Of a stretch of 47,934 nucleotides of DNA, positions 3,739 to 17,958 are shown piece after piece; positions within the stretch are counted from its first letter, which is position 1; each line of letters begins with the position of its first letter. The notes under the pieces are model-generated. The model was given only the letters and a program-made list of their open reading frames with translations. It was not told the origin of the DNA and searched no databases. Origin of the DNA: a virus; the IMG/VR virus record IMGVR_UViG_3300006923_000036, positions 1-47,934 of that record; one strand, given 5' to 3'. Both the position numbers and the translations under genes were made by a program.

Positions 3739-4263
3739 ATGAGAGAGATAAAGTTTTCTGAGCCAGCAGATATTAAAAAATTGGCAGGTACTTATTTGAT
3801 GTTTTCTGCTGTTGTTGACAAAGATGTACAAAGCAAGATAAACCAGTACTTGTTCCAAGTGTTTAATGCTAATGCTAGTTTAGAATTCGAGCCTCAAGAT
3901 TACCCGCATGTTACGTTGTTTGCCAGTCCTGATGATATAGGATACTCTCACAAGTTAGAGCTTATATCGTTTGTTCGAAATGTTTTACCTCCATCAAATA
4001 AACTTATTGATGTCGAGGTAACAGGGACTGAATTATTTTCTGATGACAAACAAACTTTAGTGGTTAGATTAGGCTCGAATAAATTAGATGAGTTAAATAA
4101 AAAGATCTGTGACTTTATGTCTAACAGAGGTTTTAAAATGAGCGAGTATAGCTTTAACCCACACATAACTTTAGGGAGGGTTTCTAGAAGTGATATTTAC
4201 TTACCCCCTATTGAAGATATGGGTATTATATTTAAAAATCTTACTGTTAGCATAGGCTACTGA
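3739..4263 (+). CDS. 2H phosphoesterase (2'-5' RNA ligase / cyclic phosphodiesterase superfamily)
   Basis: The 174-residue protein has the two hallmark H-x-T-L motifs of the 2H superfamily: HVTL at residues 57-60 (context YPHVTLF) and HITL at 142-145 (context NPHITLG), about 85 residues apart, the usual spacing for a bilobed 2H fold. The two histidines are expected to act on 2',3'- or 2',5'-linked phosphodiesters. Phage 2H enzymes include the anti-CBASS protein Acb1 (T4 gp57B), which degrades cyclic nucleotide signals, and RNA-repair enzymes. Which substrate is used here cannot be read from the sequence. The gene sits just upstream of the RNR, behind its own possible promoter, and starts at ATG 3739 without a strong ribosome site (AATAGGAT upstream). 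Confidence 0.8.
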   Translation: MREIKFSEPADIKKLAGTYLMFSAVVDKDVQSKINQYLFQVFNANASLEFEPQDYPHVTLFASPDDIGYSHKLELISFVRNVLPPSNKLIDVEVTGTELFSDDKQTLVVRLGSNKLDELNKKICDFMSNRGFKMSEYSFNPHITLGRVSRSDIYLPPIEDMGIIFKNLTVSIGY

Positions 4264-4348: not shown

Positions 4349-7300
4349 ATGTCGGAGAGTTGGTTATCGTTTAAATTAGATGACAAGTTTGTTAAAGGGT
4401 ATGAAGGTACTAGACCTAGTTTTGGGTTTGGAGGACTAGGAGAATTAGTATTTTACAGAACTTATAGTAGAGTTAAGGAGAGTGGAGGTAAGGAGAGTTT
4501 TGCAGAAGTAATTAGAAGGTGTGTAGAGGGTTCGTATACTCTACAGAAAGATCATATACTAACACACAAATTGGGTTGGGACGAGAAAAAAGCTCAGGAG
4601 TCTGCCCAAACTATGTACGATCATATGTTTAATATGAGATTCCTCCCGCCGGGACGAGGTCTATGGATGATGGGCACTGAATATGCCCACACTAAAACGC
4701 CCATGGGAATGTTTAACTGTTTTGCGGGAGAAACGGAAGTTCTTACCAAGCAAGGGTATAGACCCATATCTGATATAGCTGGCACCACGCAAACTGTTTT
4801 GACTTCTCACGGTGGGTGGGTAGAGGCTCCTATCAAGTCTTACGGTAAGGATAGCCTTTATAAATTAACGCTTACTAGAGCCCGTAAAGAGAAAGAGATA
4901 TTTGTCACAAGAAATCATATCTGGTTTGCTAAGAATAAAGCGAGTAAATGGACTAGTTACGGGGAAAAGACTACCTTGCAGTTAGAGCCCGGTAACTATC
5001 TTCGTTCTTGTTATTCGTTGGATTCTAAAAAGAACTGTAGTAGCGAGGGATTATGGAGAGTTAAATCGGTAGATAGCACAAATAGAGTAGAAGAGGTTTT
5101 TTGTGCGGAAGTAGATAAATTTAAATCTTTTGTTATAGAAGGAGATATTCTAACTCATAATTGCAGCTTTATATCCACAAAAGATATTGTTTCGGATTTG
5201 TCTTTCCCGTTCCGTTTTTTAATGGATGTATCCATGTTAGGAGTTGGGTGCGGATTTGATACTAAAGGAGCTGGTCAAGTTACTATTAACAATCCAGGAC
5301 CTGATAGCGTTTCCTTTATTATTCCAGATTCGAGAGAGGGATGGGTAGAGAGTGTAGGAAAGCTGATTGATTCGTACCTTCTGGAGAATTCTCCAGTTAT
5401 TAATTTTGACTACAGTGGAATAAGATTAGCGGGGTCCTCTATAAAAGGATTCGGAGGAGTCTCCTCGGGTCCAGGGCATTTGACTTCTCTTCATGAGAAT
5501 ATAGTAGAAATTTTTGAGGCCAAGTTAAAAACTGATAGTCCAGTTGTCGATTCTAGGGTCATCGTGGACATAATGAATTTAATCGGGGAGTGTGTGGTAG
5601 CAGGTAATATTAGAAGATGTCTCGTTGGGGAAACCCCAGTTCACACAGATAAAGGAAAGGTCCCAATTGAAGATATAAAGGAAGGGGACAATGTCCTCAC
5701 CTCTAAGGGATACCACAAGGTTACAGAGCACATTAAGCAAGGTGTGCAGGCTGTTATGGCTATAGAGACTTCTTTGGGAGTTATAGAGTGTACGGGATCT
5801 CACAAGGTGGCCGTATTTGAGTCAGAGGGAGTAGTGTTTTGGAAGAATGCTGACCAACTGAGGGAGTCTGACTACTTGGTAAGTTTAGATTCCTTAGAAG
5901 GCTTCTCTACGATGAAGATTCCAGTGAAGATTTTATCTTTGACTTATAATGTCAGGGAAGCGCCCACTTTTGATATCTCTGTTGATCAAGTTCATGAATT
6001 TATCGCTGGGGAGGGGCTATTAGTGCATAATAGTGCAGAAATAGCCATAGGAGATCCCATGGACGCTCAGTTCCTCAACCTTAAAAATTATGACCTGTAC
6101 CCTGAACGCAAGAATTTTGGGCGGTATAGTAATAACACAGTAGATGTTAAACTGGGGCAGTCCTATAACCGCTTGGCAGAACGGACTGTGACCAACGGAG
6201 AACCTGGATATATTTGGCTGGAAAATTGCCAAAAGTTTGGTAGAATGATTGATCCCCCTAATTGGAGAGATGCTAATGTATCAGGAACTAATCCATGTTT
6301 TTCGGGAGATCAAAGACTTCTTGTTATAGAAGATAAGCAAGAGATCTATAGGTCTTTTCAAGAACTTAATGGTAAGGTTGTTACTATTTATAATCCGATA
6401 ACTAGAGGAACTACTTCTGGGGTCAGAGTTTTTGAAACAGGAATGAGGGAGACTATTGATATTTGTCTCTCTAATGGCAAGAGAATAAGATGTACTCCTG
6501 ACCACAGGTTTATGTCTAGTACTGGGAAAGAAGTAGAGGCAAAAGACTTGAAAGGGGTTAGACTATTATCTGGAATGCCTTGCATTGACGATAACGAAGA
6601 GGCCAACTTTCCTGAAGTTCTTAATATAGTTAGAACTGGTACAGTGGAAAAGGTATATGACTTTTCTATGCCTAATACGCATTGGGGAGTTGTTGAAGGA
6701 GTTGTTGCTCATAATTGTGGAGAGATTAGCTTAGAAAGCGGTGAAACCTGTAACTTAGTCGAAATCTTTATGCCTAATATAGCTAACAGAAGAGAGTTTT
6801 TTAATGTTATTAAATACGCTTATCTTTATGCTAAATCAGTCACTTTAGTGACTACTCACATTGAATTAAACAATAGAGTTCAAATGAGGAATAGGAGAAT
6901 AGGCTTAAGTCTTTCTGGAATAGCCATGTTCAAAGAATCTGAGGGAGTTACAAAGATGGTCGAGTGGATGGACGAGGGTTACCACAAGGTTCAAAGATAC
7001 GATGATATCTATTCTAAGTGGTTAGCCATTCCTAAATCTATAAAGACTACTACTGTTAAACCTAGTGGATCTGTGTCTTTAGTAGCAGGAACTACTTCGG
7101 GGATACATTATCCCATGGGAGCTTTTTACTTTAAAAACATGAGGTTGGCTAAAGATTCTGACGGTGTAAAGTGGGCTGAGAGTTGCGGTTATAAGGTGGA
7201 AGAAGAAATAAAATACAAAGAGGATGACCAAGGAAACTGGGTTCCTTATGTATCTGATAGTACCTCTGTAGCGTCTATACCAGTACGTTTTCCAATTGAT

Positions 7301-7672
7301 ATACGTTCCAGAACGAGTGTTTCTATTTGGGAGCAGATGAAACTGGTAGAATTGGTTCAAAAGTATTGGGCGGATAATCAGGTTTCTGTGACTGTTACTT
7401 TTAATCCTGGAGAGGAAGAAGAAGTCTCAAGGGTTCTTGAGATGTTCGATAGAGATCTCAAGACTGTCTCCTTTATTAAGAATGATAGCAGTGACTTCCC
7501 CCAAATGCCTGAGGAAGCAGTTTCTGAATCGGTGTTTGAGGAATATGTAAAAAGCATAAATCTAAAGCCTATACTTGAGTTTATGAAGGAAGAGGCTGCT
7601 GGCGTTCTAGGATGCACGGGCGATTCTTGTGACTTGGATTATCCAGAGTTCGAGGAAGCTGAAGTAGAATGA
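4349..7672 (+). CDS. nrdJ: Adenosylcobalamin-dependent (class II) ribonucleotide reductase precursor with three inteins
   Basis: Reduces ribonucleotides to deoxyribonucleotides using a cobalamin-generated thiyl radical. The precursor is 1,107 residues; removing three inteins leaves about 681, close to the monomeric class II enzyme of Lactobacillus (RTPR, about 740). Diagnostic extein blocks: LPPGRGLWMMGT, MLGVGCGFDTKG, NIRR-SAEIAIGDPMDAQF (across intein 2), NP-CGEISLESGETCNLVE (across intein 3), VKPSGSVSLVAGTTSG, and a C-terminal CTGDSC pair. By comparison with RTPR, Cys272 of the precursor matches redox Cys119, Cys790 the radical Cys408, Cys801 redox Cys419, and Cys1089/Cys1094 the C-terminal shuttle pair. 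I place the start at ATG 4349 because GGAG at 4339-4342 sits six bases before it; an in-frame GTG at 4337 would bury that site. No small subunit or activase is needed for class II, and none is seen nearby. Confidence 0.93.
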   Translation: MSESWLSFKLDDKFVKGYEGTRPSFGFGGLGELVFYRTYSRVKESGGKESFAEVIRRCVEGSYTLQKDHILTHKLGWDEKKAQESAQTMYDHMFNMRFLPPGRGLWMMGTEYAHTKTPMGMFNCFAGETEVLTKQGYRPISDIAGTTQTVLTSHGGWVEAPIKSYGKDSLYKLTLTRARKEKEIFVTRNHIWFAKNKASKWTSYGEKTTLQLEPGNYLRSCYSLDSKKNCSSEGLWRVKSVDSTNRVEEVFCAEVDKFKSFVIEGDILTHNCSFISTKDIVSDLSFPFRFLMDVSMLGVGCGFDTKGAGQVTINNPGPDSVSFIIPDSREGWVESVGKLIDSYLLENSPVINFDYSGIRLAGSSIKGFGGVSSGPGHLTSLHENIVEIFEAKLKTDSPVVDSRVIVDIMNLIGECVVAGNIRRCLVGETPVHTDKGKVPIEDIKEGDNVLTSKGYHKVTEHIKQGVQAVMAIETSLGVIECTGSHKVAVFESEGVVFWKNADQLRESDYLVSLDSLEGFSTMKIPVKILSLTYNVREAPTFDISVDQVHEFIAGEGLLVHNSAEIAIGDPMDAQFLNLKNYDLYPERKNFGRYSNNTVDVKLGQSYNRLAERTVTNGEPGYIWLENCQKFGRMIDPPNWRDANVSGTNPCFSGDQRLLVIEDKQEIYRSFQELNGKVVTIYNPITRGTTSGVRVFETGMRETIDICLSNGKRIRCTPDHRFMSSTGKEVEAKDLKGVRLLSGMPCIDDNEEANFPEVLNIVRTGTVEKVYDFSMPNTHWGVVEGVVAHNCGEISLESGETCNLVEIFMPNIANRREFFNVIKYAYLYAKSVTLVTTHIELNNRVQMRNRRIGLSLSGIAMFKESEGVTKMVEWMDEGYHKVQRYDDIYSKWLAIPKSIKTTTVKPSGSVSLVAGTTSGIHYPMGAFYFKNMRLAKDSDGVKWAESCGYKVEEEIKYKEDDQGNWVPYVSDSTSVASIPVRFPIDIRSRTSVSIWEQMKLVELVQKYWADNQVSVTVTFNPGEEEEVSRVLEMFDRDLKTVSFIKNDSSDFPQMPEEAVSESVFEEYVKSINLKPILEFMKEEAAGVLGCTGDSCDLDYPEFEEAEVE
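4718..5161 (+). other. Mini-intein 1 in the RNR (148 aa)
   Basis: Starts with Cys in CFAGETEVLT (block A) directly after MGMFN, carries a block-B-like VTRNHIWF with the conserved His, and ends with block F/G VFCAEV ... ILTHN. The next residue is the extein Cys of CSFIST, so the +1 nucleophile is Cys. The length and absence of LAGLIDADG or HNH motifs make it a splicing-only mini-intein. The insertion point is immediately before the redox Cys equivalent to RTPR Cys119. Confidence 0.92.
5618..6031 (+). other. Mini-intein 2 in the RNR (138 aa)
   Basis: Begins with CLVGETPVHT after VAGNIRR, has a block-B-like CTGSHKVAV with the conserved His, and ends with FIAGEGLLVHN. The following extein residue is Ser of SAEIAIGD, giving a +1 Ser nucleophile, unlike the other two inteins. 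Removing it restores the RNR block NIRRSAEI. No homing endonuclease domain fits in 138 residues. Confidence 0.92.
6296..6715 (+). other. Mini-intein 3 in the RNR (140 aa)
   Basis: Begins with CFSGDQRLLV after SGTNP, has block-B-like CTPDHRFM, and ends with VYDFSMPNTHWGVVEGVVAHN-type blocks F and G (final residues VVAHN). The next residue is Cys of CGEISL, which is both the +1 splicing nucleophile and the predicted thiyl-radical Cys (RTPR Cys408). No endonuclease domain is present. Confidence 0.92.
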
Positions 7673-7681
7673 TAGAGTTAC

Positions 7682-8131
7682 ATGGAATTTGGTGACCTAG
7701 GGGAATTAATTTCTCCTTACATATACGAGTATTACAGTGACCAACGTGTCCTGGGAATCTCAGAGAGCAGCATAGAAATTTACAAGCTCTCTGAGATTCC
7801 TGCTTCCATGGAGTGCGTATATTATATAAGTCCCGATTTGGATTGGTTTTCAAAAGATTTCATTGAGTCTTGTTTAGAATCAGAGGACACTAAAACCAGG
7901 AAAAAAGCTTTGAAATACGTTTTTACGGATAAGTTTCTTAGAGTCGTTAAGTCCTCGGTTAAAAACAAGTTTTTAGACCCCTCTTTTTTAAAGAGTTTAT
8001 CAAGGTTTTGTAAGTCCAAACAGAAAAATAGTGATTCCAATGTTAGTGTGGAAGAGCTAGATATTATACCTTTAGTTATGAGGTTGATATCCAAGATGGA
8101 AAAAGATTATTTAAGAAATAGCTCTAAATAG
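7682..8131 (+). CDS. Unknown 149-aa protein downstream of the RNR
   Basis: I do not recognise the family. The protein starts MEFGDLGELISPYIYEYY and is mixed in charge, with a lysine-rich helical C-terminal half (KKALKYVF, KSSVKNKF, SKMEKDYLRN). It has no cysteine cluster, membrane segment or enzymatic motif visible to me. It starts 10 bases after the RNR stop without a clear ribosome site, so translation may be coupled to the RNR. A perfect 15-bp stem-loop lies about 70 bases into the gene (separate entry). The ORF is uninterrupted and follows the dense gene packing, so I take it as real. Confidence 0.7.
   Translation: MEFGDLGELISPYIYEYYSDQRVLGISESSIEIYKLSEIPASMECVYYISPDLDWFSKDFIESCLESEDTKTRKKALKYVFTDKFLRVVKSSVKNKFLDPSFLKSLSRFCKSKQKNSDSNVSVEELDIIPLVMRLISKMEKDYLRNSSK
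7754..7800 (+). repeat. Perfect 15-bp inverted repeat inside the gene after the RNR
   Basis: Arms GGAATCTCAGAGAGC (7754-7768) and GCTCTCTGAGATTCC (7786-7800) are exactly complementary around a 17-base loop. There is no T-run after it, so it is not a standard intrinsic terminator. It encodes GISESS and LSEIP, so the match is not forced by repeated protein sequence. An RNA structure, an operator-like site or a processing site are possible. Confidence 0.75.
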
Positions 8132-16651: not shown

Positions 16652-17257
16652 ATGCCAGAAAAACAATTTATCGCTTTCGAATCTAATAATAATTCAAAAA
16701 AATACGAAAAATCAGAAATAATAGGGTCTATACAAAGATCTTTAATGGATTTAAACAGGTCCCGCAAAAAAAACTACAAGGTACTGTTAAAAGATATTAA
16801 AGAAAGTATCCAGAATCTAGAGATATTCCTCCCTTTTAGAGAACTTCAAAAGGGAGGCTATTTTTTAAAAGAGAAAGAGTTTTATCTTCCTGGGTATGGA
16901 TTCATTGAGTACGATCCTAATGTAACCTACTTAGGTTTAGATGAAAATATCCACGTTAATCAGATTGTTTTGAATGAGGATTCTGAAGAATTAGATTTAG
17001 TCTCTGGCGAGGTTATAGAGTCAGAACAAATGAAGATGGATGAGTTCTTTAAAGGCCAGTTTAAATCAGGACAATTAGTTCAGATTATAGGCGGTACTTA
17101 CGCTGACTTACCAGCTAGGGTTGTCGAGTTAGATGATTCTGATGGAAAATACAAAGTAGTGGTATGTTTCAGGTCTGATATAAGGTATCTAAAAGTGGAT
17201 TCGGACAAACTACGGATATTCGAGTTTGACAGAATTATTATAGAAGAGGATTTTTAA
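16652..17257 (+). CDS. NusG-like transcription elongation factor (NGN plus KOW domains)
   Basis: 201 residues. An NGN-like domain covers residues 1 to about 130: the most diagnostic stretch, LPFRELQKGGYFLKEKEFYL followed by PGYGFIEY (80-87), lines up with the NusG segment 'VPTEE...RGG...KSERKFFPGYVLVQM'. A KOW domain follows at about 136-190: FKSGQLVQIIGGTYADLPA then RVVELDDSDGKYKVVV, matching NusG 'FEPGEMVRVNDGPFADFNG'. NusG-family proteins bind the RNA polymerase clamp and alter pausing and termination; specialised paralogues such as RfaH act as antiterminators. The N-terminus has an extra basic helix (RSRKKNYKVLLKDIK). A sigma70-like promoter precedes the gene and a terminator-like hairpin lies within it, which suggests self-regulation. 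Confidence 0.75.
   Translation: MPEKQFIAFESNNNSKKYEKSEIIGSIQRSLMDLNRSRKKNYKVLLKDIKESIQNLEIFLPFRELQKGGYFLKEKEFYLPGYGFIEYDPNVTYLGLDENIHVNQIVLNEDSEELDLVSGEVIESEQMKMDEFFKGQFKSGQLVQIIGGTYADLPARVVELDDSDGKYKVVVCFRSDIRYLKVDSDKLRIFEFDRIIIEEDF
16828..16866 (+). terminator. Intrinsic-terminator-like hairpin inside the NusG-like gene
   Basis: CCTCCCTTTT (16828-16837) pairs perfectly over 10 bp with AAAAGGGAGG (16848-16857) around a 10-base loop, followed by CTA and six T residues (16861-16866). It lies about 180 bases into the NusG-like coding region, over the conserved PFRELQKGG segment. Transcription must pass this point for the full protein to be made. Confidence 0.65.
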
Positions 17258-17292
17258 GACGTTCCTAATTGGAACTCAAGGCAGGTACTATA

Positions 17293-17958
17293 ATGTCCAG
17301 TAAAGGTTATTACGTAATTCCCCTTTCTCCCGACAAGTTCGAGACAATGGGGAACGACAGATCTCTTTATAATGATACTGTTGAGGAAGAGGTAGAAAAG
17401 AAAGAATCCGGAGATATCGAGGAATCACCGGCTGAGCTATTAGAAAAGAGGTGGAAGAAGTACCAGGAAATCAAAAGTCTCTTGCCCGAACGTGAGATAG
17501 ATATGCTAGAGATGTCCTTTTTACATGGAAAAGACCAGACTAGTATAGGGGAGATTTTTAATGTAACTCAGGGAGACGTTTCGTACAGAATAAGAAGAGT
17601 TTCTCATAGAATAATGTATTTAATGTCCCTCCCTGAAATTGATATGGAAGAAATGAGGCTAGACTTGTCTAAAGTATTAGACGAAGAGAAAGTTATAATA
17701 CTTTTTCTATTGCTAAAATATACTTCTCAGTCCAAAGTTGGAGAAGAACTTGGAATGCCTCAAGGAAAAGTTAGACATAGGTACATAAGCGCCATGTCTA
17801 GTATACGTAAAAAAGCGTTCAAGGACCTAAAATTTATTATGTATTATGATCTTTTTTGTAAACTACAAGGCAACTATAATGCTCTAAGAACTTTAGATGT
17901 TCAGGATAGATGGAAGCATAAGTTTACTAAGGAAGAGCCAGAATTTGAGATGGATTAA
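17293..17958 (+). CDS. Sigma-factor-like DNA-binding protein with two region-4-type HTH units
   Basis: 221 residues from ATG 17293, preferred because AAGGCAGG lies about 8 bases upstream; an in-frame TTG at 17269 lacks a site. The first unit (about residues 64-107) reads LLPEREIDMLEMSFLHGKD then IGEIFNVTQGDVSYRIRRV, the layout of sigma70 region 4: a 'LPEREREVL' helix followed by a helix-turn-helix. A second, looser copy covers about 129-173 (LDEEKVIILFLLLKY, VGEELGMPQGKVRHRYISA). No regions 2 or 3 are seen, so it is not a full sigma factor. It may be a phage-specific sigma-like regulator or an RNAP-appropriating protein. It lies 35 bases after the NusG-like gene and is presumably co-transcribed. 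Confidence 0.72.
   Translation: MSSKGYYVIPLSPDKFETMGNDRSLYNDTVEEEVEKKESGDIEESPAELLEKRWKKYQEIKSLLPEREIDMLEMSFLHGKDQTSIGEIFNVTQGDVSYRIRRVSHRIMYLMSLPEIDMEEMRLDLSKVLDEEKVIILFLLLKYTSQSKVGEELGMPQGKVRHRYISAMSSIRKKAFKDLKFIMYYDLFCKLQGNYNALRTLDVQDRWKHKFTKEEPEFEMD

What the first reader, a model, noticed from the sequence alone, without database searches (positions are those of the whole stretch)
4349..7672. Class II RNR gene carrying three splicing-only mini-inteins
Three inteins of 148, 138 and 140 residues, each with Cys1, a conserved block-B His and a terminal His-Asn, interrupt one phage gene and none has a homing endonuclease. Inteins in RNRs are well known, but three small inteins lacking any endonuclease in one phage gene is notable because endonuclease-free inteins are not expected to keep spreading. 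They differ in sequence and in +1 residue (Cys, Ser, Cys), arguing for separate arrivals rather than one duplication.
Basis: partly seen in the sequence, partly recalled or inferred. Interest (0 to 1): 0.75.

Follow-up and report, generated by a model that had tools for sequence, protein, structure and literature searches.

The report
Phage reductase with three endonuclease-free inteins
A phage's DNA-precursor enzyme gene is interrupted by three small self-removing protein segments, each from a different known lineage that has lost the enzyme it once used to spread, so it is a tidy end-stage example of a familiar kind of genetic parasite.

Summary
Window 4349-7669 encodes a monomeric class II ribonucleotide reductase (RTPR/NrdJ type). 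Three in-frame inteins of 148, 138 and 140 aa interrupt it, leaving a 681-aa spliced product. Cys1, block-B Thr/His and the terminal His-Asn are intact in all three. No homing endonuclease (HEN) was found in any of the three, or elsewhere in the 48-kb contig.

They are three unrelated site-specific alleles, not one duplicated intein (joint clade rejected, AU p=1.4e-50). At all three sites, related phage reductases carry LAGLIDADG- or HNH-bearing alleles of about 300-440 aa. The nearest reductase (56% identity) has only the site-1 intein, with its HEN. Two insertions sit directly before catalytic cysteines (RTPR C119 and C408), so the enzyme needs splicing.

Best reading: three independent invasions of known reductase hot spots, now at the splicing-only end of the homing cycle. 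Multi-intein reductases are well documented (Trichodesmium, four; Pyrococcus abyssi, three), and I found up to four in other phage reductases. The only unusual point is that no intein in this gene has a HEN. A side finding may be more interesting: intein 1 belongs to a phage family that keeps Cys1 yet carries the class 3 Trp-Cys-Thr motif.

The parts
4349..7672 (+). Class II (adenosylcobalamin) ribonucleotide reductase precursor, RTPR/NrdJ type, 1107 aa
   Evidence: TIGR02505 E=5.5e-81, PDB 1l1l E=1.4e-63, phrog_367 E=4.7e-106
4349..4717 (+). Extein part 1 (123 aa)
   Evidence: aligns to 1l1l up to N118
4718..5161 (+). Intein 1, mini-intein of 148 aa; +1 residue is the RTPR C119-equivalent redox cysteine; Cys1 plus W69, C129, T146 (WCT)
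5162..5617 (+). Extein part 2 (152 aa)
5618..6031 (+). Intein 2, mini-intein of 138 aa; +1 Ser = RTPR S320 position; block F Asp (ordinary class 1 residues)
   Evidence: PF14890 41.1 bits against cut-off 35.8; site-2 clade
6032..6295 (+). Extein part 3 (88 aa)
6296..6715 (+). Intein 3, mini-intein of 140 aa; +1 residue is the RTPR C408-equivalent radical cysteine; block F Asp (ordinary class 1 residues)
   Evidence: PF14890 47.8 bits against cut-off 35.8; site-3 clade
6716..7669 (+). Extein part 4 (318 aa), with the C419-equivalent cysteine and the C-terminal CTGDSC pair
   Evidence: sequence

Best explanation
The gene encodes a normal class II ribonucleotide reductase that was invaded at three separate active-site hot spots by three unrelated intein lineages. 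Each lineage has since lost its homing endonuclease, either in this lineage or before arrival, leaving the HINT splicing domain. The 1107-aa precursor folds, and each intein excises itself: Cys1 acyl shift (possibly helped or replaced by the block-F Cys in intein 1), transfer to the +1 Cys/Ser/Cys, Asn cyclisation and ligation. This yields a 681-aa enzyme. Two of the inteins are inserted immediately before the catalytic cysteines, so losing splicing would abolish the enzyme while losing the endonuclease costs the phage nothing. Shown here: anatomy, fold of intein 1, intact catalytic residues, allelic HEN-bearing relatives at all three sites, independent origins. Inferred: splicing activity, and the order of arrival and endonuclease loss.
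For: Exact intein anatomy and continuous extein homology; intein models hit; HINT fold of intein 1. Tree: intein 1 in an 11-row clade (100/97), intein 2 in a site-2-only clade of 7 rows (97/82), intein 3 in a 5-row clade of reductase site-3 alleles (100/98) whose other members are all 324-336 aa. One clade for the window's three rejected, p=1.4e-50; site-3 mini-inteins as one clade rejected, p=2.7e-10; at least 10 mini/long changes on the tree. LAGLIDADG_3 in 19 and HNH_3 in 3 of 26 long alleles. Nearest reductase L122 (56%) carries only a HEN-bearing site-1 intein. Close relatives differ in occupancy: L107 and L108 are 98-99% identical and differ by the site-3 intein. A possible decay intermediate is Thermus phage phiLo site 2, 269 aa with no endonuclease hit.
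Against: No splicing has been measured. Mini-inteins at site 1 as one clade (p=0.47) and at site 2 as one clade (p=0.30) are not rejected, so inteins 1 and 2 may have arrived already endonuclease-free. The closest intein 1 splicing domains by identity lie in phage methyltransferase-like genes (54-57% over 72 aa), so its route may not be purely site-specific. No close relative of the window is available to time the events.
Confidence: 0.87

Rival explanations
1. The mini-inteins still spread, or recently spread, without their own endonuclease by hitch-hiking: co-conversion when a neighbouring HEN-bearing intein homes, or ordinary phage recombination moving reductase segments. They arrived endonuclease-free rather than losing it in place.
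For: Site-1 and site-2 mini-inteins as one clade are not rejected. L064, L107, L139 and L120 carry a mini-intein beside a HEN-bearing or long one in the same gene. A mini-intein beside a HEN-bearing one is discussed as dependent on co-homing in PMC10643990.
Against: Here no neighbour has a HEN, so co-homing cannot operate now. Intein 3 has only HEN-bearing neighbours in its clade.
Confidence: 0.3
2. The inteins are kept as regulatory switches: splicing is delayed or made conditional (redox, metal, temperature) so that the reductase is activated only under the right conditions of infection.
For: Insertion directly before the redox and radical cysteines, and retention of splicing residues. Conditional splicing is reported for other inteins (PMC4031507, PMC6195587).
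Against: Related reductases work without them, and presence is patchy between near-identical phages, as expected of parasites. Nothing here tests regulation.
Confidence: 0.08
3. The gene is a decaying pseudogene whose inteins no longer splice.
For: No expression data; intein 1 lacks the block-F His.
Against: 1107 open codons, every splicing and reductase catalytic residue checked is intact, and the missing block-F His is also missing in several HEN-bearing relatives of intein 1.
Confidence: 0.04

Closest known systems
Trichodesmium erythraeum ribonucleotide reductase, four inteins (Liu et al. 2003, cited in PMC1635734)
   Same: Several non-allelic inteins in one reductase gene; from memory, some at sites beside catalytic residues
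   Different: Cellular gene that also holds group II introns; from memory, its inteins all retain endonuclease domains
Pyrococcus abyssi ribonucleotide reductase, three inteins shown to splice (Kerrigan et al. 2009, title in reference list of PMC5050341)
   Same: Three inteins in one reductase, splicing studied
   Different: Archaeal; from memory, larger inteins
Phage reductase inteins: Thermobifida phage P318 (site 1), Thermus phage phiLo (site 2), Nodularia phages (site 3)
   Same: Same insertion sites and homologous splicing domains
   Different: One intein found per gene; P318 and Nodularia are full-length (305 and 336 aa), phiLo is 269 aa with no detected HEN
NrdJ-1 split intein (Dassa et al. 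2009; PDB 8ubs)
   Same: Intein in a class II reductase; HINT fold matches intein 1 at Z 17.0
   Different: Split; here all three are contiguous
Class 3 inteins (WCT motif)
   Same: Intein 1 has Trp B:12, Cys F:4, Thr G:5
   Different: Intein 1 keeps Cys1, which class 3 inteins normally lack

Membership tests
Inteins (HINT protein-splicing elements) | N-terminal nucleophile, block-B Thr/His, C-terminal Asn and +1 nucleophile | tested here: met
   Present in all three
Inteins (HINT protein-splicing elements) | HINT fold | tested here: met
   Intein 1 by model, Z 18.1; inteins 2 and 3 by Pfam above the curated cut-off, not modelled
Inteins (HINT protein-splicing elements) | Self-excision with extein ligation | not testable with these tools
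   Needs expression
Mini-inteins | No homing endonuclease domain | tested here: met
   138-148 aa; no LAGLIDADG or HNH match
Site-specific reductase intein alleles | Same insertion site and closest kinship to inteins of that site | tested here: met
   Tree; for intein 1 with the exception of related inteins in methyltransferase-like genes
Class II ribonucleotide reductase, RTPR/NrdJ | RTPR homology and active-site cysteines C119, C408, C419 plus C-terminal Cys pair | tested here: met
   1l1l alignment; C-terminal CTGDSC in sequence. The intein-interrupted precursor scores 272.8 bits, below the TIGR02505 cut-off of 340; the spliced form was not scanned
Class 3 inteins | WCT motif (B:12, F:4, G:5) | tested here: met
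   Intein 1 only: W69, C129, T146; inteins 2 and 3 lack it
Class 3 inteins | No Ser/Cys at position 1 | tested here: not met
   Intein 1 starts with Cys
Class 3 inteins | Block-F branched intermediate | not testable with these tools
   Needs biochemistry

The most novel reading that the evidence does not exclude
Intein 1 belongs to a widespread phage intein family that keeps Cys1 but carries the complete or near-complete class 3 catalytic triplet. Its members may splice by the class 3 route, or by either route, and would then be living representatives of the proposed phage progenitor of class 3 inteins. In the set gathered here, 55 of 55 have Cys1, Trp B:12 and Cys F:4, and 45 of 55 also have Thr G:5; Cys1 was partly required by the search pattern.
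Probability: 0.2. Interest if true: 0.6.

Novelty: new member of a known kind. Interest (0 to 1): 0.36.

Why it matters
The gene captures three independent inteins at the same late stage, splicing kept and mobility lost, in one phage enzyme. The relatives assembled here show empty, HEN-bearing, apparently decaying and HEN-less states at the same sites, so the phage reductase family is a compact system for testing the homing cycle and whether HEN-less inteins can still move. The Cys1-plus-WCT family is a concrete place to test where class 3 splicing came from.

Tried and rejected
Duplication of one intein within the gene: rejected by the AU test and low mutual identity (27% between inteins 1 and 2; no significant match of intein 3 to either). 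A free-standing endonuclease in the window that might mobilise the inteins in trans: none by Pfam, PHROGs or motif scan; the ORFs after the gene (7682-8131, 8144-9094) have no informative match. Close relatives of inteins 2 and 3 by back-translation in viral contigs: none for intein 2, one weak for intein 3; junction patterns worked much better. Composition as a sign of recent arrival: GC3 of inteins 0.33, 0.44, 0.26 against extein 0.36; only intein 2 lies outside the window's central 95% range, so weak. Kinship of intein 1 to class 3 inteins: intein 1 alone gives no significant PDB sequence hit, and the profile of its family matches only an engineered gp41-1 WCT mutant; no authentic class 3 sequence was placed in the tree (record fetches 75, 76, 78, 79 failed). 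A loose LAGLIDADG pattern I used is unreliable and was replaced by Pfam. A genome-contig search with the intein 1 alignment could not be run.

Full report
WHAT IS THERE. The window is a whole virus record of 47,934 bases, so no flanking genome could be searched. It is a tailed phage with a tail sheath gene, major head protein and terminase. The open frame 4349-7672 encodes 1107 residues. It matches adenosylcobalamin-dependent ribonucleoside-triphosphate reductase (TIGR02505, E=5.5e-81; PDB 1l1l, E=1.4e-63; phrog_367, E=4.7e-106) in separate blocks, interrupted by three insertions. Using the intein rules (Cys1 to His-Asn), the insertions are 4718-5161, 5618-6031 and 6296-6715, of 148, 138 and 140 residues, and removing them leaves 681 residues. 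Every number in the finding is right.

ARE THEY INTEINS. All three begin with Cys, have Thr-x-x-His in block B, and end His-Asn before Cys, Ser and Cys. Pfam Intein_splicing matches inteins 2 and 3 above the curated cut-off and intein 1 below it. I therefore modelled intein 1 on an alignment with seven relatives: pLDDT 91. It matches solved inteins at Z up to 18.1, 1.8 A over 128 residues, including the NrdJ-1 intein at Z 17.0. Chance does not explain three such segments in one frame at conserved sites. Splicing itself was not measured.

WHERE THEY SIT. The alignment to 1l1l puts the +1 residues at C119, S320 and C408. From established knowledge of Lactobacillus RTPR, C119 and C419 are the redox pair and C408 carries the thiyl radical. 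Two inteins thus precede catalytic cysteines directly, as is usual for inteins. C419 and the C-terminal Cys pair are present, so the spliced enzyme looks intact.

NO ENDONUCLEASE. None of the three contains a LAGLIDADG or HNH match. The other main predicted proteins of the window, and all six reading frames by motif, gave no HEN either. Because the record is not known to be complete, a HEN elsewhere in the phage cannot be excluded.

RELATIVES. A scan for the extein found 71 viral loci, mostly intein-free at 40-50% identity. Scans for extein/intein junctions at the three sites found many reductases with inteins. Phage genomes added P318 (site 1), phiLo (site 2) and Nodularia phages (site 3). 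The same sites are used repeatedly, with at least three more sites in this gene family (near extein position 36, at the C419 position, and at KPSG). L131 has four inteins, L107 at least three complete plus a partial fourth, L114 and L135 three each. In each of the ten other multi-intein genes (L064, L089, L107, L108, L109, L114, L120, L131, L135, L139) at least one intein is long; the window's is the only all-mini one I saw. That is a small, pattern-selected sample.

SEPARATE ORIGINS. In a tree of 48 splicing domains, intein 1 falls in an 11-row clade (100/97) of site-1 inteins plus relatives in other phage genes (methyltransferase-like genes among them). Intein 2 falls in a clade made only of site-2 inteins (97/82). 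Intein 3 falls in a clade of five site-3 inteins (100/98) whose other four members are 324-336 aa. Holding the window's three together costs 150 log units, p=1.4e-50. Of 26 long alleles scanned, 19 have LAGLIDADG_3 and 3 have HNH_3; the 269-aa phiLo intein has neither and looks like a decay intermediate. Mini-inteins at site 3 are not one clade (p=2.7e-10), but at sites 1 and 2 a single mini clade is not excluded (p=0.47 and 0.30), so inteins 1 and 2 could have come in without their endonuclease.

HISTORY. The reductase pairs with L122 (100% SH-aLRT, 56% identity), a 993-aa frame with a single 306-aa site-1 intein that has a LAGLIDADG domain. Inteins 2 and 3 were therefore gained after that split, or lost in L122. 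Occupancy changes fast elsewhere: L107 and L108 are 98-99% identical yet only L107 has the site-3 intein, and near-identical Lokiarchaeota-bin reductases L218 and L219 hold different inteins.

LITERATURE. A Trichodesmium reductase has four inteins (PMC1635734). Splicing of three P. abyssi reductase inteins was published (reference 53 in PMC5050341). Phage reductases with introns and inteins were surveyed in PMC3653736. HEN loss after fixation is the homing cycle of PMC1654191. Mini-inteins beside full ones and possible co-homing are discussed in PMC10643990. The finding is thus a clear member of a known kind.

SIDE FINDING. Intein 1 has Trp at B:12, Cys at F:4 and Thr at G:5, the class 3 triplet, together with Cys1. 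In a set of 55 (intein 1 included) all have Cys1, Trp and Cys, and 45 have Thr. The search pattern required Cys1 in many of them, but not the Trp or the block-F Cys. [quoted passage not shown] From memory, Tori and Perler (2011) tested inteins with mixed motifs, so mixed cases are not wholly new. I could not place authentic class 3 inteins in the tree.

Noticed in passing
window 4718-5161 and relatives: Intein 1 and 54 relatives in phage genes combine Cys1 with Trp B:12 and Cys F:4, and mostly Thr G:5: class 3 motif with a class 1 nucleophile.
   Followed up: partly
L107 550-4594 and L108 1-3004: Phage reductases 98-99% identical in DNA differ by presence of a 347-aa site-3 intein; both share a 134-aa HEN-less site-2 intein.
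   Followed up: yes
L052 7177-10920 (+); L094 and L103 reductase regions: Fractured reductase genes: split-intein halves separated by a free-standing ORF that looks like a Vsr-type nuclease (by eye), resembling the Dassa et al. arrangement. L052 is split at the KPSG site.
   Followed up: partly
L082, L089, L092 (site 3): Site-3 inteins of about 400 aa end ...GITMRR|CGE with no terminal Asn; possibly non-splicing or misdelimited.
   Followed up: no
L218, L219 (Lokiarchaeota bins), L216, L217: Near-identical class II reductases with a LAGLIDADG-like intein at the C419 site (L218), an HNH-like one at C408 (L219), or none (L216, L217).
   Followed up: partly
L064 10591-12609: The same phage that has reductase inteins at sites 1 and 2 has a 131-aa mini-intein in its terminase gene.
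   Followed up: no
L074 4231-7092: Two related 341-aa inteins of the Cys1-WCT family within one protein, apparently a nuclease-like gene.
   Followed up: no
L120 2548-4962: Reductase with a non-intein charged, probably coiled-coil insertion of about 118 aa near extein position 300.
   Followed up: no
window 9103-10296: M16-family (insulinase-like) peptidase gene in a phage, E=1e-15, with no PHROG match.
   Followed up: no
window 16652-17257 and 17269-17958: Adjacent weak NusG/KOW-like antiterminator and sigma-70 region 4 genes, a likely phage transcription switch.
   Followed up: no
window 3739-4263: 2'-5' RNA ligase / LigT-like phosphoesterase directly upstream of the reductase.
   Followed up: no
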